Below, one piece after another: positions 1 to 11,033 of a DNA stretch of 35,480 bases. Numbering within the stretch: the first letter of the stretch is position 1; each line of letters opens with the position of its first letter. The DNA comes from a bacterium (lineage in GTDB: Bacteria > Auribacterota > UBA3054). The notes under the pieces are model-generated. The model was not told where the DNA came from. It saw only the letters and a program-made list of their open reading frames with translations, and searched no databases. The DNA is taken from positions 1 through 35,480 of the forward strand of contig JAFYHD010000003.1 of NCBI GenBank assembly GCA_017539325.1, written 5' to 3'. A program made the position numbers and the translations under genes.

Positions 1-30
1 ATAATAAATTGCTGTTTCAGAGGCAAAATA

Positions 31-948
31 ATGACAGTTAATAAAAGATCAAAGCCAAATTCATTATGGCATTTTTTCAGCTTTGGAACGTTTGTAAAAA
101 CTTTTCAATTTCAAAAAATATGGCTTAGTGATGTTGTTCAATCTAATGATAAATATGAATTGATATTGCACTATGCTCTTCTAAAAAGAATAACAGATAA
201 AATTAATGCTGATTTAGAAAAAAATAAAGACCTCTTGGAATGGTTTTTAAGAGAAGACAGAACAAAAGAAATGGCTGAACCTGGTTTATTATGGGCTTTT
301 TGTTTTGGAAGAGAATTAAGCAATTTGTGGATGTGGAAAGAATACGGCGACAATTTTTCTGGTGTCGCTGTCGAGTTTAATTATGACAAATTGATTTCCG
401 AGATTAGGCACTTGAACAAAGAGAATGACCTAATACAATTTGATCTATTTCCAGTTCAATATATTGATTTCGAAAACATTCCAGAAAATGTGATTGATAA
501 AGCTTTTAAAAAGATTGAAAAGTATAGAATTGATGAGCTAAATAAAAATGTAAATGAATTTTCCAAGATATTCGCACATTATAAAGAAAAAAGTTTTAAA
601 ATGGAAAAAGAATATAGGCTTGTGGCTATTAATAAGGCGAAGAAAGCAATAGACAAAAAATTGGACATAAAACATGATGAAATACTGGGGAATAATATTG
701 TCAATTTTTTAAATCAAACAATCATAATGGATAATAAAATTAAACACAGCGCAGATTTTAGATGCCATGTTAATAACGACAAAATTGTAACACATATAGA
801 ATGTCCGTTTAATTTAAAAGATGTAGTTCAGTCGGTTTGTTTTTGCGATGATCATAGTAAAGAAGAGATTGAGGGAATATTATTCCTAACTTTAGGAGAT
901 AATAATATCTCAGTTAAACCTTTTGAAACAGGGTATAATAAAAGATGA
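31..948 (+). CDS. DUF2971 family protein
   Basis: The 305-residue protein has the DUF2971 layout: an early 'WLSDVVQSNDKYE' segment (31-43) in place of the usual 'iwfs.p..fNDpfe', a core at 97-117 matching the family 'N.lMW.hYad...G..ieF' pattern (SNLWMWKEYGDNFSGVAVEF), a 'FPVQYID' strand near 140, and 'KMEKEYRLV' at 190-198 matching the family 'w..E.E.R' motif. The family has no settled biochemical function. It is frequent in accessory and defence-rich regions, which is general knowledge and not shown here. The start is supported by an AGAGG site at 19-23. The coding sequence is strongly AT-rich, unlike the genes right of 3,245, which suggests transfer. It overlaps the next gene by 4 nt (ATGA), so the two are probably translationally coupled. 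Confidence 0.75.
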   Translation: MTVNKRSKPNSLWHFFSFGTFVKTFQFQKIWLSDVVQSNDKYELILHYALLKRITDKINADLEKNKDLLEWFLREDRTKEMAEPGLLWAFCFGRELSNLWMWKEYGDNFSGVAVEFNYDKLISEIRHLNKENDLIQFDLFPVQYIDFENIPENVIDKAFKKIEKYRIDELNKNVNEFSKIFAHYKEKSFKMEKEYRLVAINKAKKAIDKKLDIKHDEILGNNIVNFLNQTIIMDNKIKHSADFRCHVNNDKIVTHIECPFNLKDVVQSVCFCDDHSKEEIEGILFLTLGDNNISVKPFETGYNKR

Positions 949-1577
949 ATTATTTGCTGAATTTAACTTTTGAAGAACTAAATAATTTTATTAAAAAGGA
1001 TTTATTACCATTAAGGTTAATCCCTAAGTCAACAGTTCAAAATGCATTTATAAGTTTTTGCAAAGAACGCGATGAGATATTAGTGGAATATATATGTACA
1101 AAAAGAGATGATGGGGCAGCAAGAAAAAGTCAAAAAGCGAGTTCGGTTTTTGACGGGATCAGGAGTGATATTGATAATGAATTATTTTTTGGCATAAAGT
1201 TTCATCAATCATATTATCAACCTTATTTTATTCATGATTATATTGTGACTGTTTCTTCGAAATTATTAGACCATTTAAGATTTTCTTTTAAGGCTATTCG
1301 AGTTTTTGACAAGGACAATAATATGAATGTTGATAATTTTTACAAAAAAATAACTATACAAGCCCATAAATTCAAACCTTTAAATTATGGTTTAATTGAA
1401 AGCGAAGTCGCTTTGTTTCAAATAAAATCTATTGACAAAAAAGAACTGGAAAAACATAATTTTAAGGTGGTTTCAAATACGCTTTGTTTGATTCTTAAGA
1501 TTCAGGAATTAAAATCATATATTAAATCCATAAATTTTATTGATCCAAAAGGACATGAAATTAAATCACTATGCTAA
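945..1577 (+). CDS. Hypothetical protein, middle gene of AT-rich operon
   Basis: I do not recognise this 210-residue protein. It is soluble-looking, has no signal peptide or membrane helix, and is rich in Lys, Phe and Ile. Residues 1-60 look helical, and the centre is rich in aromatic residues (FHQSYYQPYFIHDYI, about residues 87-101). Its start codon overlaps the stop of the upstream DUF2971 gene in an ATGA. A DUF2971-like gene begins 18 nt after its stop, so the three genes form one transcription unit. The base composition matches its neighbours and not the chromosome to the right. It could be a partner or specificity subunit for the flanking DUF2971-like proteins, but that is inference from gene order only. 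Confidence 0.65.
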   Translation: MNYLLNLTFEELNNFIKKDLLPLRLIPKSTVQNAFISFCKERDEILVEYICTKRDDGAARKSQKASSVFDGIRSDIDNELFFGIKFHQSYYQPYFIHDYIVTVSSKLLDHLRFSFKAIRVFDKDNNMNVDNFYKKITIQAHKFKPLNYGLIESEVALFQIKSIDKKELEKHNFKVVSNTLCLILKIQELKSYIKSINFIDPKGHEIKSLC

Positions 1578-1595
1578 AGCGATGGAATAGATTGT

Positions 1596-2342
1596 ATGTT
1601 TTATTATTGTCATCTAAATCTCTTTAAAGAAATTCTTGTTAATAAGGGAATTCCGTTTATAAGATCATATACCCCTAACTACATTATTATTAAAAATAAG
1701 AAGGGAGAAGATTTATTGATCAGCGTGAAACATTTCTTTAATTGTTTGCCATTTGTTAACTTCCCATCGCCATTTAAATTTCAAATAAGAAATGATTTTA
1801 GAAACGCTTCTGAACTAAAAAATTGTTTTGTTCGAATGTTTTTTGAGAATCCCAAGGATATAACTCGTTGGGAGGACCTAAATGGTATTGGTTTTGCTAT
1901 TGAATTCACAGATCGATTTCATGACTTCCAATCAGAAACATTGAAATGCTTTCCTATTGATTATAAAAAACTGCAAAGTAAGTTTTCTTCTCTGGAATCT
2001 TTTAAAAGAATAAATTTTGTCAAGGAAATTAGAGAATTGCCAGATGATTATATTAATAGGGAAGAAACAATAACTATTCAATATACGAAAGCTGTTAAAG
2101 GAGTTAGCATTTTTGAAATTGACGACAAGTCTTTTGAAATAGTATGGCCAAATATTCCCTTAAAATATGGTTATATAAATGAATTCGGTTTTGAGCGTTT
2201 TATTATTGGACCTGACACTAATATTAATAAAAATGCATTGAGAAAGATATTGGCTTTTTATAATATGTTTTTTGATTGGGGACTGATTAACGATAAAATA
2301 AAGAAGCTTGTGTATAAACTACGAGGCGTGGATTATTTGTGA
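1596..2342 (+). CDS. Divergent DUF2971-like protein
   Basis: At 248 residues this protein carries what looks like a degenerate DUF2971 core. Residues 76-105 (NCFVRMFFENP...RWEDLNGIGFAIEF) follow the family pattern of a strand ending in Cys/Phe, then a Trp-containing helix, then 'G..IEF'. The C-terminal 'ERFIIGP...NKNALRKIL' (about 200-219) resembles the family's closing strand-plus-helix 'i.lG.......i..ll'. The Met-Trp of the canonical motif is replaced by Arg-Trp, and the N-terminal 50 residues do not fit the family clearly. It is the third gene of the AT-rich operon. If the assignment is right, two different members of one family bracket an unknown protein. An unrelated fold with chance resemblance remains possible. 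Confidence 0.5.
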   Translation: MFYYCHLNLFKEILVNKGIPFIRSYTPNYIIIKNKKGEDLLISVKHFFNCLPFVNFPSPFKFQIRNDFRNASELKNCFVRMFFENPKDITRWEDLNGIGFAIEFTDRFHDFQSETLKCFPIDYKKLQSKFSSLESFKRINFVKEIRELPDDYINREETITIQYTKAVKGVSIFEIDDKSFEIVWPNIPLKYGYINEFGFERFIIGPDTNINKNALRKILAFYNMFFDWGLINDKIKKLVYKLRGVDYL

Positions 2343-2411
2343 TAAACTTGAAAATGCTGAAGCTTTATGCTTTTCGTCAATTTTAAATTTGATTGCTCAA
2401 ATACAAAGAAT

Positions 2412-3227
2412 TTAAATATCTTTAAAATTGTTCGGTTTACAATGTGATTCACATTTTCTACAATGGTTTTCCAATTTTATATAGTCATATTCATTTAGTA
2501 ATAGTTCCTTGTTAGATACTTCTTTGAAGATCCCATCTGATGAATATAGATCTTTGATCATTAAAACAAAAGAAGATAAAGAGGAATTAAGCGATAAATA
2601 TGGATCGAAAGAAATCTCTGCTTTTTCGCTATCATAATGAATATCGCACTGAAATTTATCTCTGGTTGTTTTGAATTCATCCAAACATTTTTCATAATCA
2701 TTCAAATAGCGTTCATATGAACTTATTAGCGTATTAATTTGATTTAACTCTTTTGTATCTAAAAGACCTCTTTCAGTTTCTTTTACGCGAACAGATTCTT
2801 TATACATGAACTCTGCTTGAATCAAAGCGCGTTCACATGTTTGGCAGTCAGCTGTATAAGTGTTAGGATTAAATTTATCAACAACTTCTTTGATTGTCAT
2901 ATTTTTTTTGTGTTCTTTTTCGTTTTCATAAATGACATAAAAGAGTTGTTCGGAAAATTTTACCGCAATTGCAATAAGTTTCATAAGTATGGACTCTCTG
3001 GCCGCATTAAGAACTGTTTTATCTCTAAAGTACTTGAAAACATCAATTATAAACGCGGCTAACACAGAAGCCAATAAACTGGCTAGTATTGCTAGCCCAA
3101 AATTTGGCCATGAAATGGTTTGGATGTTTTCTGTGTGTGAATAATGTAAGATTAATAGAATGATTAATACAATTAAAATTGTAGCTGTTATAAGATAAAA
3201 TAGACAACAAGGCTTAGCGTTTTTCAT
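2412..3227 (-). CDS. Hypothetical two-helix inner-membrane protein with Cys pairs
   Basis: This 271-residue protein has two predicted membrane helices (about 9-29 and 44-64) joined by a short polar loop. A long, largely helical soluble part of about 200 residues follows. It contains a CxxC pair (C128, C131), and the C-terminus carries C256xxC259xxxC263 with nearby His residues, which could bind a metal or form disulfides. Positive charges just after helix 2 (KYFRDK) favour a cytoplasmic C-terminal domain. No known family is recognised. It is convergent with the AT-rich operon (69 nt between stops) and has similar low GC. No clear Shine-Dalgarno sequence precedes the ATG. It may be an independent accessory gene or the membrane component of the neighbouring cassette. 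Confidence 0.6.
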   Translation of the reverse strand: MKNAKPCCLFYLITATILIVLIILLILHYSHTENIQTISWPNFGLAILASLLASVLAAFIIDVFKYFRDKTVLNAARESILMKLIAIAVKFSEQLFYVIYENEKEHKKNMTIKEVVDKFNPNTYTADCQTCERALIQAEFMYKESVRVKETERGLLDTKELNQINTLISSYERYLNDYEKCLDEFKTTRDKFQCDIHYDSEKAEISFDPYLSLNSSLSSFVLMIKDLYSSDGIFKEVSNKELLLNEYDYIKLENHCRKCESHCKPNNFKDI

Positions 3228-3246
3228 TTTTTTAATTTATATCAAG

Positions 3247-4380
3247 TTAAAAATCTGTCCCTTCCCTGAGTATGTTCAGGTAGGAGTCGTAGGAATAGAT
3301 GACGGTTTTGCGGGTTTTGGAGCTTGGTTTCAGAATGCCTTTGGTGCACATTAGCTTGACGTAATTCGCCATGGTGTTCCTGGAGCACTGCAGACATTCC
3401 GCGGCGATAGGGATCGTTATGATTGGGTTGCTTTCCAGGTGGGTGAGGAAGTTTTTTAGTTTTTGGTTGGGAAGCAGAGCTTCGTTTTTGGCGTGAAGGG
3501 CGTTAAGCTTTTTTATGGCGGCGGTGGCGTCCTGCGCGGTTTCGGCGATGCCTCTAAGGAAAAATTTTATCCACTGCTCGAAGGTGCCGTTGTTCCTTAT
3601 GTCACTTAGTCTGTCGTAGTATTCCATTCTGTTGGCTTTGAGATAGCAGGACAAATAAAGGACAGGGGAAGACAGAATTTTTTCCCTTATTAGGAACAAG
3701 GTTATAAGAAGCCTTCCTATGCGGCCGTTGCCGTCCAGGAAGGGGTGGATAGATTCAAACTGATAATGAATAAGAGCGGACTTGATGATAGGGTCCATGC
3801 CGTCTTCACGGTTAATGAACCGTTCAAGATCGTTCATGGCTTTCAGCATGTCCTTATAGTTCGGGGGAATGTAACGGGCGTTTTTCAGAGTGCTGCCGGC
3901 TCCTCCGATCCAGTTTTGAGATTTCCTGAACTCGCCAGGGGTCTTGTCGCAGCCTCTGATGCTCTTCATCAAAACGGCGTGAATTTCCCTTATAAGCCGG
4001 TTGCATAAAGGGAAGCCTTTCATTCTTTCTACGGCGAAATTGATCGCCCTGACGTAATTGACAACGTCTGAAACGTTAGCGTTGACGTTTTCGTCTATAG
4101 ACGGGTTGAAGATGTCGTCTATGGTGCACTGAGTGCCTTCTATTTGGGAAGAAACCAAGGCTTCCTTTCTAACGTACATTGATATGAAAAGATCGCGATT
4201 AGGGATTCCAGAGGACAAGCCTTCCAGAACGGAAATCTTTCTATACGCTTCGATCAAAAGCTGCTGCATTTCGGAATCGATCTCGATATCCGGAACAGGC
4301 GGCAGAGCGCAGGGGCGAAATGAATAATAGGTCATATCGCCGCTGAGGTTTTTGACAAGCTTTCCGGCTCTTTCGTTCAT
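3247..4380 (-). CDS. Fic family protein (probable AMP-transferase, class II type)
   Basis: The 377-residue protein contains the complete Fic active-site motif HPFLDGNGRIGR at 212-223, with catalytic His212. Such enzymes usually transfer AMP from ATP to a hydroxyl side chain of a target protein. Before it, SSQIEG at 77-82 matches the inhibitory (S/T)xxxE(G/N) helix, whose Glu blocks ATP orientation, so the enzyme is probably self-restrained. The N-terminal 100 residues fit the Fic_N domain. Residues about 308-370 look like a winged helix (ECLQCSRNTMANYVKLM), common in this architecture. A good Shine-Dalgarno (GGAG, about 4388-4391) precedes the ATG. A promoter with an overlapping palindrome lies upstream, and no separate antitoxin gene is adjacent. 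The target cannot be inferred. Confidence 0.9.
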   Translation of the reverse strand: MNERAGKLVKNLSGDMTYYSFRPCALPPVPDIEIDSEMQQLLIEAYRKISVLEGLSSGIPNRDLFISMYVRKEALVSSQIEGTQCTIDDIFNPSIDENVNANVSDVVNYVRAINFAVERMKGFPLCNRLIREIHAVLMKSIRGCDKTPGEFRKSQNWIGGAGSTLKNARYIPPNYKDMLKAMNDLERFINREDGMDPIIKSALIHYQFESIHPFLDGNGRIGRLLITLFLIREKILSSPVLYLSCYLKANRMEYYDRLSDIRNNGTFEQWIKFFLRGIAETAQDATAAIKKLNALHAKNEALLPNQKLKNFLTHLESNPIITIPIAAECLQCSRNTMANYVKLMCTKGILKPSSKTRKTVIYSYDSYLNILREGTDF

Positions 4381-4410
4381 GTTGTTTCTCCTTTTTTGAG
4401 TTTTCGACTT

Positions 4411-4440
4411 ATTTTAGCATAAGAAAACGCAAAAAATCAA
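4411..4440 (-). promoter_or_regulatory. Candidate fic promoter
   Basis: Read on the minus strand, TTGATT (4435-4440) and TAAAAT (4411-4416) are separated by 18 nt and lie 30-60 nt upstream of the fic ATG. The -35 element and spacer are covered by the palindrome at 4425-4454. Confidence 0.5.
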
Positions 4441-4454
4441 CTATTTTTGCGTTT
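4425..4454. promoter_or_regulatory. Perfect inverted repeat over the fic promoter (candidate operator)
   Basis: AAACGCAAAAA (4425-4435) and TTTTTGCGTTT (4444-4454) are perfect 11-bp arms around an 8-nt centre. The arms cover the -35 element and most of the spacer of the candidate fic promoter, the expected position for a repressor site. The Fic protein's own C-terminal winged helix is a possible binder (inference). An RNA hairpin is less likely because the element lies upstream of the predicted transcription start. Confidence 0.5.
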
Positions 4455-4462
4455 ATTGGCTA

Positions 4463-4504
4463 TATCACCTTAGTGATACAAGATGAGGTTAGAATTTGTC
4501 TTTG
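4463..4504. repeat. Repeat module copy A: palindrome plus relic gene end
   Basis: TATCAC-N4-GTGATA (4463-4478) is followed after exactly 9 nt by GTTAGAATTTGTCTTTG. The same arrangement, with the same 9-nt spacing, occurs at 9550-9591, where the second part is the real 3' end of the Panacea antitoxin gene. Here no intact gene follows. On the minus strand a short reading frame ending ...QTKDKF-stop resembles the antitoxin's C-terminus (...KLKGKF-stop). I interpret this as the leftover end of a lost paralogue, with the palindrome as an operator facing leftward toward fic. Confidence 0.55.
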
Positions 4505-4617
4505 GTTTGGATTTGTCGTATTTGAAGCTTTTGACTTTTCCGTTTTCACCTACAAGGATAGAAGGTTACTGTTGATATAATGCCCATATGATCTAATAAA
4601 ACCAACCGGGTTATGAT

Positions 4618-5541
4618 ATGATATACGGAAAAGAAATAAGCTGTCTTATGTCGAGCAAACAAGAGAATAATATCATCGCGCTGTTAGCTGTCGAAAAAGA
4701 CGGTTTGACGGCTGTTGAGATACATAAGCTCCTGTTTGTTTACGCGATGGAAGAGGAAGCGAAGCATTCCTGCGAGTTCATCCCTTACATTAAGGGATGC
4801 TATTCCCCAACTTTGGCGAGAACATTGTCAAAACTTCAGGAAAATCATTTCATTAAGGAAGTTGAGATTTCCGGCGTGCCCAAAATAGCCCTGACGGCTG
4901 AGGGAAAATGGTGCGCCATGGGGTTACAGGCGTCTGCCATAATGAATGAGTTCCTGAAGAGGTATACTTTTCGGGGAAATGATTTGCTAGAAGACGTGTA
5001 TTGCAGATATCCCTATTGGGCGATAAACAGCGCTATAGCCTCTACGGTTCTAAAAGACAAGCCTGAAGCTTTGAAGGCAATAAAGGACGCCAGACCTAAA
5101 GAAGGCCTTAAATTGGCTTCCATAGGGTACGAGGGAAGAAGCTTCGAGAATTATCTGAACGCTTTGATAAAGAGCGGTACGGATGTCTTGTGCGATGTTA
5201 GGAAAAACCCCATAAGCAGAATATATGGGTTCTCCAAATCTTCTCTTAAAAACGCCTGCGAGAAGTTGGGGATAGAATACAGGCATTTTCCGGAATTGGG
5301 TATTCCTGGCGAGTCAAGAAAAGAACTCAATACCCAGGATGACTACGATAAACTGTTCGCCTGGTATGAGAGAAACGTTTTGCCCAAGAACGATTCGTTT
5401 ATTGATGAATTGATCGAGCTGTTAGGAGCCGGGAAAAATATTGCTTTGACTTGTTTTGAAGCCGATCCCGCTCAATGTCACAGAACCAGGATCTTAAATA
5501 AAATATCTTTGAAAACGGGAATGGATTCTGTCTTGATATAG
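4618..5541 (+). CDS. Winged-helix (YwgA/Panacea-like) plus DUF488 fusion protein
   Basis: This 307-residue protein has two parts. Residues about 15-100 carry a 'KLLFVYA...FIPYIKGCYSPTLARTLSKLQ' pattern reminiscent of the helix-rich YwgA/Panacea-type domains ('kLlfl...f.py.yGpfs..l...L'). Residues about 165-295 are a clear DUF488 domain (ASIGYEGRSFENYLNAL, DVRKNPISR, FPELGIPGESR, and TCFEADPAQCHR with Cys279 and Cys287-His-Arg). DUF488 has no firmly known activity; the conserved Cys-His-Arg suggests catalysis or metal binding. A second in-frame ATG at 4648 is an alternative start, and neither start has a strong Shine-Dalgarno. A TATAAT-like -10 lies at 4576-4581. The next gene starts 2 nt after its stop. 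Confidence 0.75.
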   Translation: MIYGKEISCLMSSKQENNIIALLAVEKDGLTAVEIHKLLFVYAMEEEAKHSCEFIPYIKGCYSPTLARTLSKLQENHFIKEVEISGVPKIALTAEGKWCAMGLQASAIMNEFLKRYTFRGNDLLEDVYCRYPYWAINSAIASTVLKDKPEALKAIKDARPKEGLKLASIGYEGRSFENYLNALIKSGTDVLCDVRKNPISRIYGFSKSSLKNACEKLGIEYRHFPELGIPGESRKELNTQDDYDKLFAWYERNVLPKNDSFIDELIELLGAGKNIALTCFEADPAQCHRTRILNKISLKTGMDSVLI

Positions 5542-5543
5542 TT

Positions 5544-5828
5544 ATGGAAGTACCACGTAAAGAAAAGATACTGGTACTGGTAAAAACATATCCGACAAAA
5601 TCTAAAAAGTATATTGAAACGGTTTGTACTGCCGGTATCAGAGAAGATGGATCCTGGGTAAGAATATTTCCAGTCCCGTTCAGGAGACTGGAAGATTATC
5701 ATCGATTCAGCAAGTATCAATGGATAGAATGCTATCTTTATAAGACAAGCAAAGATACAAGGCCGGAAAGCTACCACATTGACGAAAGCAAAGAATTGTT
5801 ATTTGGAGAAAGAATCGGCAAAGAATGA
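5544..5828 (+). pseudogene. Truncated conserved partner of DUF488 gene (5' fragment)
   Basis: The 94 residues (LVLVKTYPTKSKKYIETVCTAG...WVRIFPVPFRRL...YQWIEC...RPESYHID) match the beginning of a conserved hypothetical family that often sits beside DUF488 genes. From memory, full-length members are roughly 230-250 residues. Here the frame ends at a TGA only 23 nt before the oppositely oriented fucosidase gene ends, leaving no room for the missing C-terminal part. The gene is therefore a 5' remnant cut by a rearrangement at about 5,825-5,850, or a functional short variant. It starts 2 nt after the DUF488 stop, so the original pair was an operon. Confidence 0.6.
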
Positions 5829-5851
5829 TTTTTGCTTTTTCTCGGACATAA

Positions 5852-7108
5852 TTATTTGGATTCCGGAGGGAATTTGAGTCTTATGATGGGAGGTTCGTCG
5901 GGGATATCGTCGATGGGGATGTCGTAGATGTGGAGGGAGGGTTCGTCGCGGTAGGTTGGGATGATGACTTCGGATTTGAGTTTGGTATTTGTGTTGAGGA
6001 GAATTGCTTCTTCGGGGAGGGTCTTGAGGGGGTGGAGGTCGATGCCGGTCTTGGTGAGGCCGTTGGGGTAGTGGAGGTAGAGGTAATCGGGGGTCTTGAT
6101 TATTTTGACATTTCTGTCGGATGTGAGATCGGTTACGATCTCACCGTGGAAGGAGGGTTTGACTTTTTTGTACCAGGCGCCGGTTTTGGAGAAGAGGTTT
6201 ATTGCTTCTTTTGGGAGGGTGCCGTCGCTTTTGGGGCCAATGTTAAGGAGGTAATTAGAGTCCTCGCAGAGGCAGCGGTCGATGGTTTTCGTTAGGTAGG
6301 ATTTCGTGCGGTAGTCTTCGTTTGCACGGTAGCCCCAGCTTTGGGCTCCTACGCTGTCGCAGGTCTCGGTCAGGGGGCGTTTCCTGTTGGCCCAGTCGCC
6401 GAAGTCGCGTTCCGGGGTGGAGTAGTCGCCTTCGTTGCCGCCCCAGCCGCGGTTGTTGATTTTGATGTTGGGCTGGAGTTTCCTTACGAGGGCGTTCATC
6501 TCGGGGTCGTCGACGTTGGGGGGAATGTCCCAGAAGAGGCAGCAGATCTCGCCGTAGTTGGTTAAGAGCTCGCTGAGCTGGGCTTTTACGTGGGCGCGGT
6601 ATTTGTCCATGTCGGGTTCGTCGCCGGGGTTTGGCTCCTTGAGCTGGTGGGAGCTTAGCTTGTTGTAGGCGTTGGGGTGGTGCCAGTCGGGGATGGAATA
6701 GTAAAGGCCGAATTTCATGTTGCGGCGTTTGCAGGCTTCGGAGAGCTCTTTAAGGACGTCTCTTTTGCAAGGGGTGTTCATGACGTTGAAGTCGGTGGTC
6801 TTCGTGTCCCACATGCAGAAGCCGTCATGGTGCTTAGAGGTGATGACGATGTATTCCGCGCCGAGGGACTCGGCGGCGTCTATGAACTTGTCCGGGTCGA
6901 AATGTTCGGCGGTGAACTTTGGGAGGTATTTTTCGTATTCGGCTTTGGAGAGGCCAAGCTTCATCCATTCCTGCTCGTGGTAGCCGCCGACCGAATAGAC
7001 GCCCCAATGGATGAACATGCCGAGACGGCGGTCGAACATCTGCCAGGGGTTGGAATAAGCCTGGAGAGAAACAAAGGGAAGCAGTAAGAGAAAGAGAGAT
7101 TTTTTCAT
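5852..7108 (-). CDS. Secreted alpha-L-fucosidase, GH29
   Basis: The 418-residue protein begins with a signal peptide (about residues 1-19, hydrophobic LFLLLLPFVSLQA) and then a GH29 catalytic domain. Visible hallmarks are the N-terminal 'RLGMFIHWGVYSVGGYHEQEW', the 'SKHHDGFCMWDT' segment (91-102), 'RDVLKEL', 'FGLYYSIPDWHHP' and 'TPERDF' (231-236). Asp194 in 'CLFWDIPP' sits where the family nucleophile is expected. The enzyme would release terminal L-fucose from glycans in the periplasm or outside the cell. It is slightly short for the family, lacking an obvious C-terminal carbohydrate-binding domain beyond the final beta sandwich. AAGGAG at 7117-7122 supports the start. It stands alone, without fucose-uptake genes nearby. 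Confidence 0.93.
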   Translation of the reverse strand: MKKSLFLLLLPFVSLQAYSNPWQMFDRRLGMFIHWGVYSVGGYHEQEWMKLGLSKAEYEKYLPKFTAEHFDPDKFIDAAESLGAEYIVITSKHHDGFCMWDTKTTDFNVMNTPCKRDVLKELSEACKRRNMKFGLYYSIPDWHHPNAYNKLSSHQLKEPNPGDEPDMDKYRAHVKAQLSELLTNYGEICCLFWDIPPNVDDPEMNALVRKLQPNIKINNRGWGGNEGDYSTPERDFGDWANRKRPLTETCDSVGAQSWGYRANEDYRTKSYLTKTIDRCLCEDSNYLLNIGPKSDGTLPKEAINLFSKTGAWYKKVKPSFHGEIVTDLTSDRNVKIIKTPDYLYLHYPNGLTKTGIDLHPLKTLPEEAILLNTNTKLKSEVIIPTYRDEPSLHIYDIPIDDIPDEPPIIRLKFPPESK

Positions 7109-7127
7109 ATGATGGCTCCTTATAATT

Positions 7128-7154
7128 ATTATACTAACTTACTCCGCAGATCAA
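7128..7154 (-). promoter_or_regulatory. Candidate fucosidase promoter
   Basis: On the minus strand TTGATC (7149-7154) and a consensus TATAAT (7128-7133) precede the fucosidase start by about 20 nt. The spacer is short (15 nt), so the -35 assignment is weak while the -10 is convincing. Confidence 0.4.
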
Positions 7155-7252
7155 GAAATAATGTCGGGAAAAAGAGACATGTTTATGGATGAATCGTTGA
7201 CGTAAGATAAAAAGATAAACTGTATAATGGTATTGATTAGAGATGATAATCG

Positions 7253-7274
7253 AGTGACAAAACTAGTGACAAAA
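7253..7274. repeat. Tandem AGTGACAAAA sites downstream of the AbiEi-like gene
   Basis: AGTGACAAAA occurs at 7253-7262 and again at 7265-7274, a 12-bp period. The reverse complement (TTTTGTCACT) shares TTTGTCAC with the perfect palindrome that overlaps the promoter of the AbiEi-like gene at 7957-7986. These may be extra binding sites for the same protein at the far end of its gene. The surrounding 7155-7340 holds no convincing gene. Confidence 0.4.
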
Positions 7275-7340
7275 TATATGTGTCAATACATATTAAAGAA
7301 TGACATTTAAAGACTTGTTAGCTATTCTTTTCATAATAAC

Positions 7341-7940
7341 CTATAGTGTGGAGATATATTCGTAGATCCAGGAAGTGGTGTAACGGGCTTCCTTTTTCAT
7401 TTTTTGAATTTCTTTTGGAGTGAATAAATTTCTCACCTGATTGGTGAATTTCTGATTAATATGGATCTTTCCAAGGGTTTTTAGGGCTTGGATAAATAGG
7501 GCAGTTTTAAACGAGAGATTTTTGATCTCTCGTTCTGGAACATGCTTGAAATAAAGTTTAATCTTTGAGTCATTCAATGGAAAACATTTATAGCTTCCAG
7601 TACTTGCATAACAATAGATTGCCGGCACCTGAGTGGAGAGGCCGAGCATATTTAAAGCAGCGTTGCCTTCGGGGATTATATCCCAACCGAAGTTGCGTGC
7701 TATAGCTTTGGCGACGAGATCCGGATCGGGTTTAACATATTCATTTATAAAGTTATTGTATTTGGATTTGTAATAAATTCCTCTGGCAATGCGGCCAATG
7801 AATCCTGAACGTTCCAAACGGGTTATGACCTTACGAACATTGACACGGTTCGTAAGGTCATAAAAGTCTGCTAGAACGAACGGCTCTTTGGTTTTGGCAA
7901 TTCTGTCTTTAATAGCTTGTGCGTAACTGTTTGTACTCAT
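7341..7940 (-). CDS. AbiEi-like antitoxin / DUF6088 family protein (orphan)
   Basis: The 199-residue protein begins with a winged helix-turn-helix (VLADFYDLTNRVNVRKVITRLERSGFIGRIARGIYY, about 22-57) and continues with the conserved 'PDLVAKAIARNFGWDIIPEGNAALNMLGLSTQVPA' region. This is characteristic of DUF6088/AbiEi-type antitoxins, which repress their own operon and counter an AbiEii-type nucleotidyltransferase toxin. No such toxin gene is next to it: only the fucosidase lies downstream and the divergent BI-1 gene upstream, so it appears orphaned or acts with a toxin elsewhere. The start is supported by an AGGAG site (7945-7949). A perfect palindrome lies immediately upstream. Confidence 0.75.
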   Translation of the reverse strand: MSTNSYAQAIKDRIAKTKEPFVLADFYDLTNRVNVRKVITRLERSGFIGRIARGIYYKSKYNNFINEYVKPDPDLVAKAIARNFGWDIIPEGNAALNMLGLSTQVPAIYCYASTGSYKCFPLNDSKIKLYFKHVPEREIKNLSFKTALFIQALKTLGKIHINQKFTNQVRNLFTPKEIQKMKKEARYTTSWIYEYISTL

Positions 7941-7956
7941 ATTTCTCCTATATTTT

Positions 7957-7986
7957 TGTCACAAATAATATATAATATTTGTGACA
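7957..7986. promoter_or_regulatory. Perfect palindrome upstream of AbiEi-like gene (candidate auto-operator)
   Basis: TGTCACAAATA (7957-7967) and TATTTGTGACA (7976-7986) form perfect 11-bp arms about an 8-nt A/T centre. The centre holds likely minus-strand -10 sequences (TATTAT/TATATT), placing the palindrome over the promoter, 17-46 nt upstream of the start codon. Autorepression by AbiEi-type antitoxins through inverted repeats is known for the family; its application here is inference. Confidence 0.6.
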
Positions 7987-8013
7987 TGAAATCAAGAGGG
8001 TTAATCTGATCGT

Positions 8014-8052
8014 TCATAAGTAAGCGGTCGCGAAACGGGAAAAATTGCGTTT
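8014..8052 (+). repeat. 39-bp direct repeat, copy 1
   Basis: The 39 bp from TCATAAGTAAGCGGTCGCGA to AAAAATTGCGTTT recur in the same orientation at 11043-11081 with a single mismatch (G8038 versus A11067). This copy is 74 nt upstream of the AbiEi-like start and 79 nt before the BI-1 start. It contains the palindromic hexamer TCGCGA. Confidence 0.85.
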
Positions 8053-8130
8053 TGTGGTTTGAAGATGATGAGGAAGTTAGGGTAAGAACGGAGTTTTGGT
8101 AAAATGGAGGGAAACAAACAGGAGGTAGTT

Positions 8131-8847
8131 ATGATCGATTTTCAGGATAGGATAAAAGACCACAGGTATGTCGGCACGGGAGAGGGGACGGTGTCTCGCG
8201 AGCGCGCGGTTTCCTCTATCTTCAAGATGGTGTACGGCTTGATGTTTTTGGGCTTGGCTTTGAGCGGGGGAGTGGCCTGGATGTTCTTTCGGACGGAAGC
8301 CTATAAGAGCGTGAACTTCACGCTGCTGATCGTTCTGGAATTGGCGCTGGTCATTATTTTGTCTTTTTGCTTCCAGAAGCTGTCGTATTGGGTGGCGCTG
8401 GGGATGTTCCTTTTGTATTCGGCGCTGAACGGAGCGACGCTGTCTGTTATTTTCCTTGCTTACCAGATAGGTACGATACAGAACGCTTTCTTTTTGACGG
8501 CGGGGATATTCGCCATTATGGCGATATACGGAACGGTTACGAAAGCGGACTGTTCGAAGGTGGGGTCTATCTGCGTCTTCGGGTTGCTTGGCATCATTCT
8601 CGCGTCTGTCGTGAACATCTTTCTGAAGAGTTCCGGACTGGACTGGGCGATATCTCTGATCGCCATTGCGGTCTTCACGGGGCTAACGATGTGGGACGCT
8701 CAGAAGATCAAAGCGCTGGCGAGCGTGGAAAGGGAACTGGGCAATGAGACGGCAAGGAAGCTGTCCGTTATGGGAGCGCTTATGCTGTATTTGGACTTTG
8801 TGAACCTGTTCCTTTCTTTGCTTAGAGTGATGGGAAGAAGGAAATAA
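8131..8847 (+). CDS. Bax inhibitor-1/YccA family membrane protein
   Basis: The protein (238 residues from the start chosen here) has about seven membrane helices and the BI-1/YccA signature. It begins with a short cytoplasmic tail (MIDFQDRIKDHRYVGTG), and the last helices carry 'GLTMWDAQKIKAL' and 'GALMLYLDFVNLFLSLLRVMG', where the conserved Asp pair typical of the family's pH-sensitive calcium leak channels is found. An upstream in-frame ATG at 8104 is possible, but the ATG at 8131 follows a strong GGAGG (8121-8125) at ideal distance and is preferred. The gene is convergent with the XRE gene (5 nt between stops). Its role is probably membrane ion homeostasis; in bacteria YccA also interacts with FtsH. 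Confidence 0.92.
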   Translation: MIDFQDRIKDHRYVGTGEGTVSRERAVSSIFKMVYGLMFLGLALSGGVAWMFFRTEAYKSVNFTLLIVLELALVIILSFCFQKLSYWVALGMFLLYSALNGATLSVIFLAYQIGTIQNAFFLTAGIFAIMAIYGTVTKADCSKVGSICVFGLLGIILASVVNIFLKSSGLDWAISLIAIAVFTGLTMWDAQKIKALASVERELGNETARKLSVMGALMLYLDFVNLFLSLLRVMGRRK

Positions 8848-8852
8848 GCTAT

Positions 8853-9515
8853 TTATTTTAGAGATGTAATGCGCGCCGGTTCAAACAGATCCTCTATCGA
8901 ACAGCCTAAAACTTGGGCTAGAGACTTGAGGTGCCATGCTTCGGCATGGTTTATGTTTTTCTTGCGCTGCTCGTAGAGCTGGATGGATCTTAAGCCTACT
9001 CCGGAGGCATTTGCCAACTCGGATTGCGAACAACCGTAAGCGGTTCGGATGCGTTTCAAACGCGTTTCCGGATGTTTTTCAAACATCATCCTGTCGACGT
9101 CGTCTGCGAAGCGATCTTCCGGAGCCTCATGGTAGATCTTGTACATTTGCATCACAGTCGTGAAAGGAAGCGTTTCGGAGATCTCCAGGAAGGTCCATTC
9201 AGATCTCCACTGATAATATGCTATGATCCAACCTGACCAATATGCTGGAGTTCTATGCATATTAGGCCTGGAAGGAGAGAAGTCCGTTCGGTCTGTTTTT
9301 TCCAACAATACATCCTGGGCCAATTCGATGCCGGATCTTCCATAGATAAGGATCTTATCGCCAGCTTCTATGCGGCGCGCGTATTTTGAAGTCGCGAAAA
9401 GCTGAAAGAATACGTCCGGATCTATTTTTAGATCGCTTACGGCGTAATCGGTCATATCGGCCAAACGATTCTGGACTTTATGAAGTAATGTTTCTGGGTA
9501 TGCGCTCATCTTCAT
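8853..9515 (-). CDS. XRE-family regulator with uncharacterised N-terminal domain
   Basis: Residues about 151-210 of this 220-residue protein are a canonical XRE helix-turn-helix (ETRLKRIRTAYGCSQSELANASGVGLRSIQLYEQ) followed by the usual 'L..LA.vLgc.iedLfEP' ending. The N-terminal 150 residues (including GRSGIELAQDVL and RTPAYWSGWIIAYYQWRSEWTF) form a conserved accessory domain that I recall from proteins adjacent to small DUF3990/DUF3791-type genes in other bacteria. I cannot confirm that here, and no such partner is adjacent. The palindrome ATATCACT-CT-AGTGATAT (9549-9566) lies 34-51 nt upstream, a likely autoregulatory site. The protein could be the antitoxin or regulator of a lost toxin. 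Confidence 0.8.
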   Translation of the reverse strand: MKMSAYPETLLHKVQNRLADMTDYAVSDLKIDPDVFFQLFATSKYARRIEAGDKILIYGRSGIELAQDVLLEKTDRTDFSPSRPNMHRTPAYWSGWIIAYYQWRSEWTFLEISETLPFTTVMQMYKIYHEAPEDRFADDVDRMMFEKHPETRLKRIRTAYGCSQSELANASGVGLRSIQLYEQRKKNINHAEAWHLKSLAQVLGCSIEDLFEPARITSLK

Positions 9516-9548
9516 TTCCTATTCTTTCTCTGATGATTACATTAAGAT

Positions 9549-9566
9549 ATATCACTCTAGTGATAT
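9549..9566. promoter_or_regulatory. Palindromic operator candidate between Panacea gene and xre
   Basis: ATATCACT-CT-AGTGATAT has perfect 8-bp arms with a 2-nt centre. It lies between the end of the antitoxin gene and the start of xre, inside a possible minus-strand promoter (TTGCTT, 17 nt, TATATC). A near-copy (TATCAC-N4-GTGATA) lies at 4463-4478 upstream of fic. Confidence 0.55.
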
Positions 9567-9591
9567 AAAAGCAAGTTAGAATTTGCCTTTG
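9550..9591. repeat. Repeat module copy B: palindrome plus antitoxin gene 3' end
   Basis: This is the counterpart of 4463-4504: TATCAC-N4-GTGATA, a 9-nt gap, then GTTAGAATTTGCCTTTG. Here the last block is the actual 3' end of the Panacea antitoxin gene on the minus strand. Confidence 0.55.
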
Positions 9592-10550
9592 AGTTTTGAT
9601 CTGATGTATTTGTTGGTGCCGGATTCGGTTGCGAGGTCGTATTTCTGATTGACGGCTTTGAAATACTTTTTTATGACTGACTTGGTGATTACGGAGTTGG
9701 GTTCCGCTTTCTTCCAGGGGTCTTCGCTGTGGGTGATGGTTTCCAGGGTTTTTCCGGAATAGGCTCCAAATGTAGCGGAGACTAGGTCGATGATTTGCTT
9801 TTCTTTGTCTGTTAAGGCGTCAGTGCTGCTGTTTAAGATGATGAAGCGGTCGTCGTCGATGGGGTTGTATTTGAAGCTTTTGAAGAGATGGTAGATCTCC
9901 TGGTAAACGGGGCCGTGAGGCCAGGCTTCGCATTCCTCGGGGAAGATGGGAGCGGATTCCAGGGCGAGGGAATATCCCTGGCAGAAGTAAAGGAGTTTTT
10001 GCAAGCCCAAGGGGGTTATCTCGCTAAGGTTGTTGAAAAGGCGGGCGATAGTTGAGCGGAGCTTGTCGGAAAAGGAGAATATCTTCTCAAGTTCGCAGGC
10101 GGTCTGGTAGGCTTTCCTATAGGCGGCGTTGGTGAGTTTGCTTTTGTTCTTCTCAAGCTGTTTCTTCATAAAGACGGGAGAAGCAAGGGCGGACCTTATT
10201 ACGGCGGAATGCTTTTTTGAAGGGAAACAGCCGATTAGATATCTGGATATGGTAACTTCTCCGAAGCCAAGTGCTAAAGATAGGGGAGCTTGCCCTATGT
10301 TGTAGAGATTAAACAGTGTTTTGATCTCATCAATAGACACCAGATTTTCAAATTGTCTGTATTGCTCGTCATATTCTTTGATTTTCAAATCGATTATTCC
10401 ATCAACATCCATTTCAGCCCCGCAGTACTGACAAATGGCTGATGAAAGAGAGAATTTATATGTTTTCCCTCTTATCTTTTTACGGTAAGGAGTTTTGATA
10501 ATTTTATATTCTCTGTTTTTGCGACATTCAATGCAAAAATCTTCTTTCAT
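9576..10550 (-). CDS. MqsA-type zinc finger / HTH / Panacea-domain antitoxin
   Basis: The 324-residue protein is modular. Residues 6-43 hold two Cys pairs (C6xxC9 and C40xxC43) of an MqsA-like zinc finger. Residues about 70-120 contain an HTH (GQAPLSLALGFGEVTISRYL). Residues about 155-300 are a Panacea domain (formerly DUF4065/SocA-like; LQKLLYFCQGYSLA at 183-196, then EAWPHGPVYQEIY). Panacea domains are known to neutralise many unrelated toxins, and the zinc finger and HTH normally bind the operator. The upstream toxin gene overlaps its start by 4 nt, so the pair is a toxin-first operon like mqsRA. The C-terminal 25 residues are Lys-rich. It probably acts as cytoplasmic antitoxin and autorepressor. 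Confidence 0.85.
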   Translation of the reverse strand: MKEDFCIECRKNREYKIIKTPYRKKIRGKTYKFSLSSAICQYCGAEMDVDGIIDLKIKEYDEQYRQFENLVSIDEIKTLFNLYNIGQAPLSLALGFGEVTISRYLIGCFPSKKHSAVIRSALASPVFMKKQLEKNKSKLTNAAYRKAYQTACELEKIFSFSDKLRSTIARLFNNLSEITPLGLQKLLYFCQGYSLALESAPIFPEECEAWPHGPVYQEIYHLFKSFKYNPIDDDRFIILNSSTDALTDKEKQIIDLVSATFGAYSGKTLETITHSEDPWKKAEPNSVITKSVIKKYFKAVNQKYDLATESGTNKYIRSKLKGKF

Positions 10551-10984
10551 TTTTTTCCCTCTTTAAAGTAATATTTTAATTTATATTTTTGCTCGTGGAA
10601 CGATATTATTATCACAGTGTTTTCTTTAGTGTTATTTATTTTTATATATAAAGAGATTAAAACTAACTTTTTACCAATCCTTTCCTCTAACAAGACATTT
10701 TTGCCGAATATATATAATAATTCATCCTTGTATTCAATATGTTTATTTTGGGAAACATTGGAAAAATCATCGAAATTTAAAGTTAAGATTATTTCTTTTG
10801 CTTTATTTTTGTCAATTATGTAATTCGTAAATAGGTCAATGTTGTTTTGTCTGTTTTTGTTTAGAGCGAAACGACAGAGACCAATTTTAATCTTTTGTCT
10901 TACTTCCGCCAGATAATCCTCAATGTGAGTCTTATCAACTATTATTCGTTTGCGACTATTATGATAGTATTTTTTGTTTTTCAT
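10547..10984 (-). CDS. MqsR-like toxin (putative mRNA interferase)
   Basis: This 145-residue basic protein has the layout of MqsR-family toxins: an N-terminal 'DKTHIEDYLAEVRQ' helix, a 'KAKEIILTLNFDDFSNVSQ' segment matching the family 'a...i..L...dF..s', then beta strands ending in 'NTVIIISFHEQKYK', the usual 'vvivSFke' terminus. MqsR toxins cleave mRNA in the RelE fold. Context strongly supports the call, since the next gene (4-nt overlap) encodes an MqsA-type/Panacea antitoxin. The length is somewhat greater than the roughly 100 residues of E. coli MqsR. The ATG lies directly against a candidate -10 box and has no Shine-Dalgarno, so the true start is uncertain. The gene is AT-rich relative to the antitoxin's C-terminal half. 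Confidence 0.7.
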   Translation of the reverse strand: MKNKKYYHNSRKRIIVDKTHIEDYLAEVRQKIKIGLCRFALNKNRQNNIDLFTNYIIDKNKAKEIILTLNFDDFSNVSQNKHIEYKDELLYIFGKNVLLEERIGKKLVLISLYIKINNTKENTVIIISFHEQKYKLKYYFKEGKK

Positions 10985-11033
10985 ATCATATTATTATGAT
11001 GGCTTTTTGTCAATATGCTATCTTGGCGATAGC
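10985..11033 (-). promoter_or_regulatory. Toxin-antitoxin promoter with two inverted repeats
   Basis: On the minus strand a consensus TTGACA (11008-11013), a 17-nt spacer and TATGAT (10985-10990) form a strong promoter. The -10 lies in the palindrome ATCATA-TTAT-TATGAT (10985-11000). A second palindrome, GCTATC-TTGGC-GATAGC (11017-11033), lies just upstream of the -35. Both are sensible sites for the HTH or zinc-finger part of the antitoxin. The annotated toxin ATG (10984) abuts the -10. Confidence 0.6.

What the first reader, a model, noticed from the sequence alone, without database searches (positions are those of the whole stretch)
31..2342. Compact AT-rich three-gene cassette with two DUF2971-like proteins around an unknown protein
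The genes are tightly coupled (4-nt overlap, then 18 nt). They share a base composition far lower in GC than the rest of the window and lie at the edge of a toxin-antitoxin-rich island. Two members of one poorly understood family bracketing a protein of no recognisable family is an arrangement I do not know. A defence or toxin-antitoxin module is a reasonable hypothesis, and this is the best candidate here for an undescribed system.
Basis: partly seen in the sequence, partly recalled or inferred. Interest (0 to 1): 0.62.

Follow-up and report, generated by a model that had tools for sequence, protein, structure and literature searches.

The report
Three-gene cassette with predicted ADP-ribosyltransferase
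Three tightly packed, AT-rich genes at the end of an uncultivated bacterium's contig, inside a cluster of phage-defence-like genes, encode one protein of the uncharacterised DUF2971 family that looks like an ADP-ribosyltransferase (an enzyme type often used as a toxin), an unknown protein, and a probable diverged, motif-poor relative of the first, so this may be a small toxin-based defence module of a kind not yet described.

Summary
The three genes are real and at the stated coordinates (31-948, 945-1577, 1596-2342; 4-nt overlap, then an 18-nt gap; 27-29% GC). Gene 1 is a genuine DUF2971 protein that keeps every residue invariant in its family. Gene 3 misses Pfam's DUF2971 model. It is, however, weakly but repeatably a diverged DUF2971 relative (0 of 5000 shuffles; above 146 real controls) that seems to have lost most conserved residues. 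Gene 2 matches nothing. No homologue of genes 2 or 3 was found in about 940 genomes, in pattern scans of 85,000 species genomes and of viral contigs, or in plasmids and phages, so co-occurrence cannot be tested: this is a single case. The window is a whole contig, so the cassette starts at an assembly edge and may be incomplete. A fourth, convergent AT-rich gene lies next to it. New here: fold and sequence evidence places DUF2971 near the ADP-ribosyltransferases DarT and Tpt1, though no fold match is significant alone. Most likely mechanism (confidence 0.4): gene 1 is an ADP-ribosyltransferase effector restrained by gene 2 and/or the pseudo-enzyme gene 3, acting as a toxin-antitoxin-like phage-defence module. 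The main rival is a stand-alone DUF2971 gene beside unrelated cargo.

The parts
31..948 (+). Gene 1: DUF2971 protein (305 aa), family invariants intact (N39 D40 W102 Y105 G111 Y144 K185 E192 E194 R196); predicted ADP-ribosyltransferase-like fold; putative effector/toxin
   Evidence: Pfam PF11185 E 1.3e-9; PADLOC PDC-S31 E 3.9e-8; alignment of 20; AF2 pLDDT 81.7, pTM 0.81; Foldseek top hits Tpt1 and DarT (not significant singly); profile match at ART motif I
945..1577 (+). Gene 2: orphan protein (210 aa), start overlaps the stop of gene 1 by 4 nt; by position the candidate antitoxin/partner (inference)
   Evidence: No family in Pfam, PADLOC or PHROGs, no PDB sequence match, no homologue; coding bias
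1596..2342 (+). Gene 3: probable diverged DUF2971 relative (248 aa) keeping W92, G99, Y123; L replaces the invariant Y; the ND and K..ExExR motifs are not recognisable; candidate pseudo-enzyme
   Evidence: hmmsearch --max 10.1 bits, 0 of 5000 shuffles; hhalign 24.3, 0 of 146 real controls; motif table; AF2 with DUF2971 rows: mean pLDDT 60, 80-91 in the best core blocks
2412..3227 (-). Convergent AT-rich gene (271 aa, two predicted N-terminal membrane segments by eye, then a long soluble part); may or may not belong to the same acquired block
   Evidence: ORF, GC 30%, no family above a cut-off

Best explanation
The three genes are the visible end of one acquired operon in a defence/TA island. 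Gene 1 is a catalytically competent DUF2971 enzyme with an ADP-ribosyltransferase (ART) fold of the DarT/Tpt1 kind. When released or triggered, for instance by phage infection, it would transfer ADP-ribose from NAD+ to a nucleic acid or a protein and stop growth or phage replication. Gene 2, translationally coupled to it, and gene 3, a motif-depleted relative that probably binds but does not catalyse, would restrain it or sense the trigger. Shown: gene layout, DUF2971 identity and intact motif of gene 1, defence-island context. Supported but not proven: ART fold of DUF2971; gene 3 as a diverged DUF2971. Inferred only: toxicity, substrate, the roles of genes 2 and 3, single transcript, phage defence.
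For: Gene 1: DUF2971 E 1.3e-9 and PDC-S31 matches; all family-invariant residues present. ART fold: confident AF2 model. Its best PDB fold matches are Tpt1 (7yw4) and four DarT structures (7omv, 7omw, 7omx, 7omy) among the top ten, with the ART toxin TreTu (8s2n) at rank 31. In profile-profile alignment DUF2971 versus DarT scores 30.1 and versus Tpt1 25.9, against 26.8 for DarT versus Tpt1; column-shuffled profiles reach at most 14.6 and reversed ones about 11. The aligned stretch is the same in both, the beta1-alpha1-beta2 'LYHYT...IL' region. The invariant ExExR lies where strand 194-201 begins, as an ART catalytic Glu would. Gene 3. Coupling: 4-nt overlap and 18-nt gap. Context: Fic, DUF488/M19, AbiEi-like and Panacea genes in the same 11 kb; DUF2971 elsewhere beside DUF1016, PemK, AAA_13, HsdM, Bro-N and SLFN_AlbA/RecG-C genes and in a satellite phage.
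Against: No Foldseek hit reaches E 0.001 and the TM-scores are modest. The sequence match to ART families is one short motif. With the two divergent members L063 and L064 left out, the DarT comparison drops to 17.3, still above shuffles. Gene 3's similarity is remote and absent from Pfam; its model was built with DUF2971 rows and is biased towards that fold. Genes 2 and 3 have no homologues, so neither linkage nor purifying selection is tested. In 20 other loci DUF2971 stands without such partners. Neither the CmdTAC partner (SecB) nor the DarTG partners (macrodomain, NADAR) are present by Pfam. The operon may be cut at the contig edge.
Confidence: 0.4

Rival explanations
1. Gene 1 is a stand-alone DUF2971 effector, as in most genomes, and genes 2 and 3 are unrelated AT-rich cargo of the same island that happen to be adjacent and co-oriented.
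For: All 20 DUF2971 loci examined lack a tandem paralogue and recognisable gene 2 or 3; DUF2971 also sits alone on IncI plasmids; the next gene, 2412-3227, is AT-rich too but on the other strand.
Against: The 4-nt overlap and 18-nt gap suggest co-translation; gene 3 is itself DUF2971-like, an unlikely coincidence for an unrelated neighbour.
Confidence: 0.35
2. Gene 3 is a decaying duplicate of a DUF2971 gene (a relic) and gene 2 an orphan reading frame under little constraint; only gene 1 works.
For: Gene 3 seems to lack most family-invariant residues; no homologues of genes 2 and 3 exist in the collections searched.
Against: Full-length open frames with coding-type GC by codon position in all three; genes 1 and 3 share no detectable pairwise similarity, so this is not a recent duplicate; long AT-rich frames without stops are unlikely by chance.
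Confidence: 0.12
3. DUF2971 is not an ART but another fold, such as a nuclease or a nucleotide-binding domain, so the module, if it is one, works differently.
For: Foldseek E-values 0.2-1.1 and probability at most 0.35; DarT and Tpt1 match only at one motif; single DarT/Tpt1 sequences mostly do not outrank all controls.
Against: Fold and sequence evidence independently point to the same two ART families, at the same motif, with shuffled and reversed controls far lower.
Confidence: 0.25

Closest known systems
DUF2971 (PF11185) / PADLOC candidate PDC-S31
   Same: Gene 1 carries the whole domain and all invariant residues
   Different: Normally a single gene; here followed by an orphan and a diverged relative
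DarTG (DarT1-NADAR, DarT2-DarG)
   Same: ART-type toxin gene with its partner in one operon; gene 1 model resembles DarT; similar motif I; DarTG shown to protect against phage (PMC11543638)
   Different: Gene 1 is not in the DarT family; gene 2 is not a macrodomain or NADAR by Pfam; third gene present
CmdTAC (toxin, antitoxin, SecB-like chaperone)
   Same: Three-component system with an ART-type toxin (PMC11618068)
   Different: No SecB-like protein among genes 2 and 3 by Pfam; gene 3 looks like an ART/DUF2971 relative instead
Tpt1/KptA RNA 2'-phosphotransferase
   Same: Best single PDB fold hit of gene 1 and a shared motif-I stretch
   Different: Different conserved residues; no housekeeping context

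Membership tests
DUF2971 (PF11185), gene 1 | Pfam gathering score reached over the whole domain | tested here: met
   39.7 bits against cut-off 22, profile 1-89 of 89
DUF2971 (PF11185), gene 1 | Family-invariant residues ND, W..Y, G, Y, K..ExExR | tested here: met
   Alignment of 20 proteins, motif table
DUF2971 (PF11185), gene 3 | Pfam gathering score reached | tested here: not met
   No DUF2971 hit up to E 1
DUF2971 superfamily (remote), gene 3 | Profile similarity above controls, collinear with the family | tested here: met
   10.1 bits, 0 of 5000 shuffles; hhalign above 146 real controls, residues 2-126 on profile 12-137; the absolute hhalign probability is only 7%
DUF2971 superfamily (remote), gene 3 | Conserved, presumably catalytic residues | tested here: not met
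   W, G and Y kept; L for Y; ND and K..ExExR not aligned by hmmalign; MAFFT places one E at the second E and T at the R
ADP-ribosyltransferase superfamily, gene 1 | ART fold | tested here: inconclusive
   Top PDB matches are Tpt1 and DarT but E 0.19-1.1
ADP-ribosyltransferase superfamily, gene 1 | Motif I stretch shared with ART families | tested here: met
   hhalign 30.1 (DarT) and 25.9 (Tpt1) versus at most 14.6 in shuffles
ADP-ribosyltransferase superfamily, gene 1 | NAD+-dependent transfer activity | not testable with these tools
   Needs biochemistry
CmdTAC | SecB-like chaperone component | tested here: not met
   No SecB hit in Pfam for genes 2 and 3 at E up to 1
DarTG | DarT-family toxin plus macrodomain or NADAR antitoxin | tested here: not met
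   No DarT (PF14487) match in the host genome; no macrodomain/NADAR in gene 2
Toxin-antitoxin / abortive-infection system | Toxicity of one gene neutralised by another | not testable with these tools
   Needs expression in a laboratory strain
Conserved three-gene system | Co-occurrence of the three genes in other genomes | tested here: inconclusive
   No homologue of genes 2 or 3 found

The most novel reading that the evidence does not exclude
DUF2971 is an unrecognised branch of the ADP-ribosyltransferase superfamily used in phage defence, and this cassette is an undescribed three-component form of it in which an active transferase is paired with a catalytically dead relative of itself and an orphan antitoxin.
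Probability: 0.27. Interest if true: 0.72.

Novelty: new variant of a known kind. Interest (0 to 1): 0.45.

Why it matters
DUF2971 is common (21 of 289 sampled genomes; conjugative IncI plasmids) but has no function: only one paper in the open-access library names it, in a frameshift list. If DUF2971 is an ART family, a large set of candidate defence genes gains a testable biochemistry (NAD+-dependent modification) and specific residues to mutate. The cassette would add a design in which an active enzyme is kept with an inactive relative of itself.

Tried and rejected
Homologue searches for genes 2 and 3: translated searches in about 940 genomes from several phyla, plasmids, phages, viral contigs and genome contigs by exact 8-residue patterns: nothing real; a few E about 0.004 hits are short and low-scoring, several interrupted by stops, and all but one fall mainly in the unrelated gene 2412-3227. 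Gene 2 as a DUF2971 relative: rejected (0.2 bits, 2235 of 5000 shuffles as good). Foldseek of the gene 3 model: uninformative, model too poor. Foldseek of gene 1 against viral models: weak hits to mostly unnamed proteins, no help. PDB sequence searches with genes 1-3 and the DUF2971 profile: nothing. A degenerate-pattern scan with the 20-protein alignment was not possible; with four close members it gave two viral loci without genes 2 or 3. My first DarT/Tpt1 profile comparison had wrong-strand sequences and was redone; one Tpt1 row (L073) is still not a Tpt1 frame and adds noise. The weak Pfam/NCBIfam hits of gene 2 (DUF6559, OPT) and gene 3 (haemagglutinin) are far below cut-offs. Promoter and terminator scans gave only consensus matches of no weight in such AT-rich DNA.

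Full report
Observation. The window is the whole 35,480-base contig C175 of a 2.0-Mb draft genome. Three + strand ORFs lie at 31-948, 945-1577 and 1596-2342, with a 4-nt overlap and an 18-nt gap. Their GC is 26-29% (GC3 0.21-0.25). Elsewhere the window rises from about 42% to 59%, apart from short AT-rich stretches such as 10547-10984. The frames are not chance and show coding-type composition. Two qualifications: the convergent gene 2412-3227 (-) is almost as AT-rich (30%) as the three genes, and gene 1 begins 31 bases from a contig end with its frame open upstream. The upstream extent of the operon is therefore unknown, although an AGAGG-like ribosome site precedes the ATG at 31 (sequence).

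Gene 1. It is a DUF2971 protein (Pfam 39.7 bits against a cut-off of 22), matches the PADLOC phage-defence candidate family PDC-S31 (E 3.9e-8) and phrog_1762. Against 19 DUF2971 proteins from unrelated genomes it keeps every invariant position: D40, Y105, Y144, K185, E192, E194, R196, and the nearly invariant N39, W102, G111. AlphaFold2 with this alignment gives a good model (pLDDT 81.7, pTM 0.81).

What DUF2971 is. No solved relative exists by sequence. Foldseek against the PDB gives no significant single hit. The first, second, fourth, sixth and tenth matches, however, are all ADP-ribosyltransferase superfamily members: Tpt1 7yw4 and four Thermus DarT structures, with TM by target length 0.43-0.46 for DarT; the Rhs toxin TreTu is at rank 31. 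To test this by sequence I fetched DarT (PF14487) and Tpt1 (PF01885) proteins from sampled genomes and compared profiles. DUF2971 versus DarT scores 30.1, DUF2971 versus Tpt1 25.9, and DarT versus Tpt1, two accepted members, 26.8. Column-shuffled DUF2971 profiles reach at most 14.6 and reversed ones about 11. The aligned piece is the first strand-helix-strand 'LYHYT....IL' of DUF2971 against 'YHIT...IL' of DarT and 'YHGT' of Tpt1, the NAD-pocket motif I of this superfamily (placement from general knowledge). The DarT score depends partly on two divergent members, L063 and L064; without them it is 17.3. Taken one by one, most DarT and Tpt1 sequences do not outrank all of 146 unrelated real proteins, although most of them match at this same place. 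The invariant ExExR of DUF2971 sits at the start of strand 194-201, where ARTs carry the catalytic Glu (E160 of Thermus DarT, E152 of DarT1). I put the ART assignment of DUF2971 at about 0.7. It rests on weak but independent lines that agree.

Gene 3. Pfam, PADLOC and PHROGs see nothing. A profile of 20 DUF2971 proteins scores it at 10.1 bits with filters off, above all 5000 shuffles of itself (best 7.5) and above every other ORF in the 20 loci outside the DUF2971 genes (best 8.1). A profile without gene 1 gives 9.8 bits. hhalign ranks it above 146 real control proteins with a collinear alignment of residues 2-126 to profile positions 12-137, but its absolute probability is only 7%. It keeps W92, G99 and Y123 of the DUF2971 core and has Leu at the invariant Tyr; the ND and K..ExExR motifs cannot be placed by hmmalign, and MAFFT retains at most one E of the ExExR. 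An AF2 model made with DUF2971 rows reaches pLDDT 80-91 only in the best core blocks and 60 overall; since those rows bias it, I use it only as 'not contradictory'. Gene 3 is thus probably a diverged relative without the catalytic set, i.e. a pseudo-enzyme (about 0.75). Genes 1 and 3 have no pairwise similarity, so this is not a recent duplication.

Gene 2. No family, no PDB relative, no relation to DUF2971. Its role is inferred from position only.

Distribution. Neither gene 2 nor gene 3 has a homologue in about 940 genomes searched by translated search, in pattern scans of 85,000 species genomes and IMG/VR, in plasmids or in phages. Gene 1 has no close relative either; the nearest are about 25-35% identical on part of its length, on Enterobacteriaceae and Rhizobium plasmids and a streptococcal satellite phage. 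DUF2971 as a family occurs in 21 of 289 sampled genomes. In 20 such loci it has no tandem paralogue and no gene 2/3 counterpart, but in six it lies beside genes typical of defence or TA loci: DUF1016/SNase, PemK, AAA_13 (1-nt overlap), HsdM, Bro-N and an SLFN_AlbA/RecG-C protein. No control without DUF2971 was counted for that proportion.

Context. Bases 1-11,000 hold a SoFic-type Fic (3247-4380), DUF488 PDC-M19A with a short PDC-M19B piece (4618-5828), a DUF6088/AbiEi-like protein (7341-7940) and a Panacea (SocA-like) antitoxin with an AT-rich partner (9576-10984), interspersed with ordinary genes; housekeeping genes (of the rsmA, pdxA and lpxB type, named from their sequence by eye) follow.

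Mechanism. I think it most likely (0.4) that gene 1 is an ART effector kept in check by its co-translated neighbours and released by infection or stress, as CmdT is and as DarT is countered by its partner (PMC11618068, PMC11543638), with gene 3 as a substrate- or partner-binding pseudo-ART and gene 2 as antitoxin or sensor. Layout and motifs are shown; fold and gene 3 kinship are supported; toxicity, substrate, regulation and defence are inference. The chief rival (0.35) is a solitary DUF2971 gene next to unrelated cargo. Membership in CmdTAC or DarTG is not supported because SecB, macrodomain and NADAR partners are absent by Pfam, which does not exclude a similar way of working.

Verdict. The finding is a real but single, edge-truncated cassette. 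Its lasting value may be less the arrangement than the lead that DUF2971 is an ADP-ribosyltransferase family.

Noticed in passing
window 9576-10984 (-): A fused antitoxin-like protein (MqsA-like zinc finger/HTH start plus SocA/Panacea domain) overlaps by 4 nt a 145-aa protein of 26% GC with no family: a likely Panacea toxin-antitoxin pair with an unrecognised toxin.
   Followed up: partly
window 4618-5828 (+): PDC-M19A (DUF488) followed by only about the first 90 of about 250 positions of PDC-M19B: the second gene of a candidate defence pair appears truncated next to a fucosidase-like gene on the other strand.
   Followed up: no
window 7341-7940 (-): DUF6088/AbiEi-like antitoxin-type protein with no obvious AbiEii-type toxin in the adjacent listed ORFs.
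   Followed up: no
window 14481-19246 (-): Two tandem Na+/Pi-cotransporter/PhoU proteins overlapping by 4 nt, both with an N-terminal bacterial Ig-like (Big_1-type) region, an unusual fusion.
   Followed up: no
L042:2319-5422 (+): DUF2971 gene overlapping by 1 nt the end of an AAA_13 ATPase gene, an ATPase-plus-effector layout that could be a DUF2971 defence system of its own.
   Followed up: no
L054:2167-5810 (+): On an E. coli IncI plasmid a DUF2971 gene sits directly behind the relaxase gene nikB; DUF2971 matches occur on 58 plasmid records, 55 of them conjugative.
   Followed up: no
L063 and L064: Two divergent DarT-family proteins have DUF2971-like N-termini (FYHYT, LYHFT) and may be intermediates between DarT and DUF2971.
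   Followed up: partly
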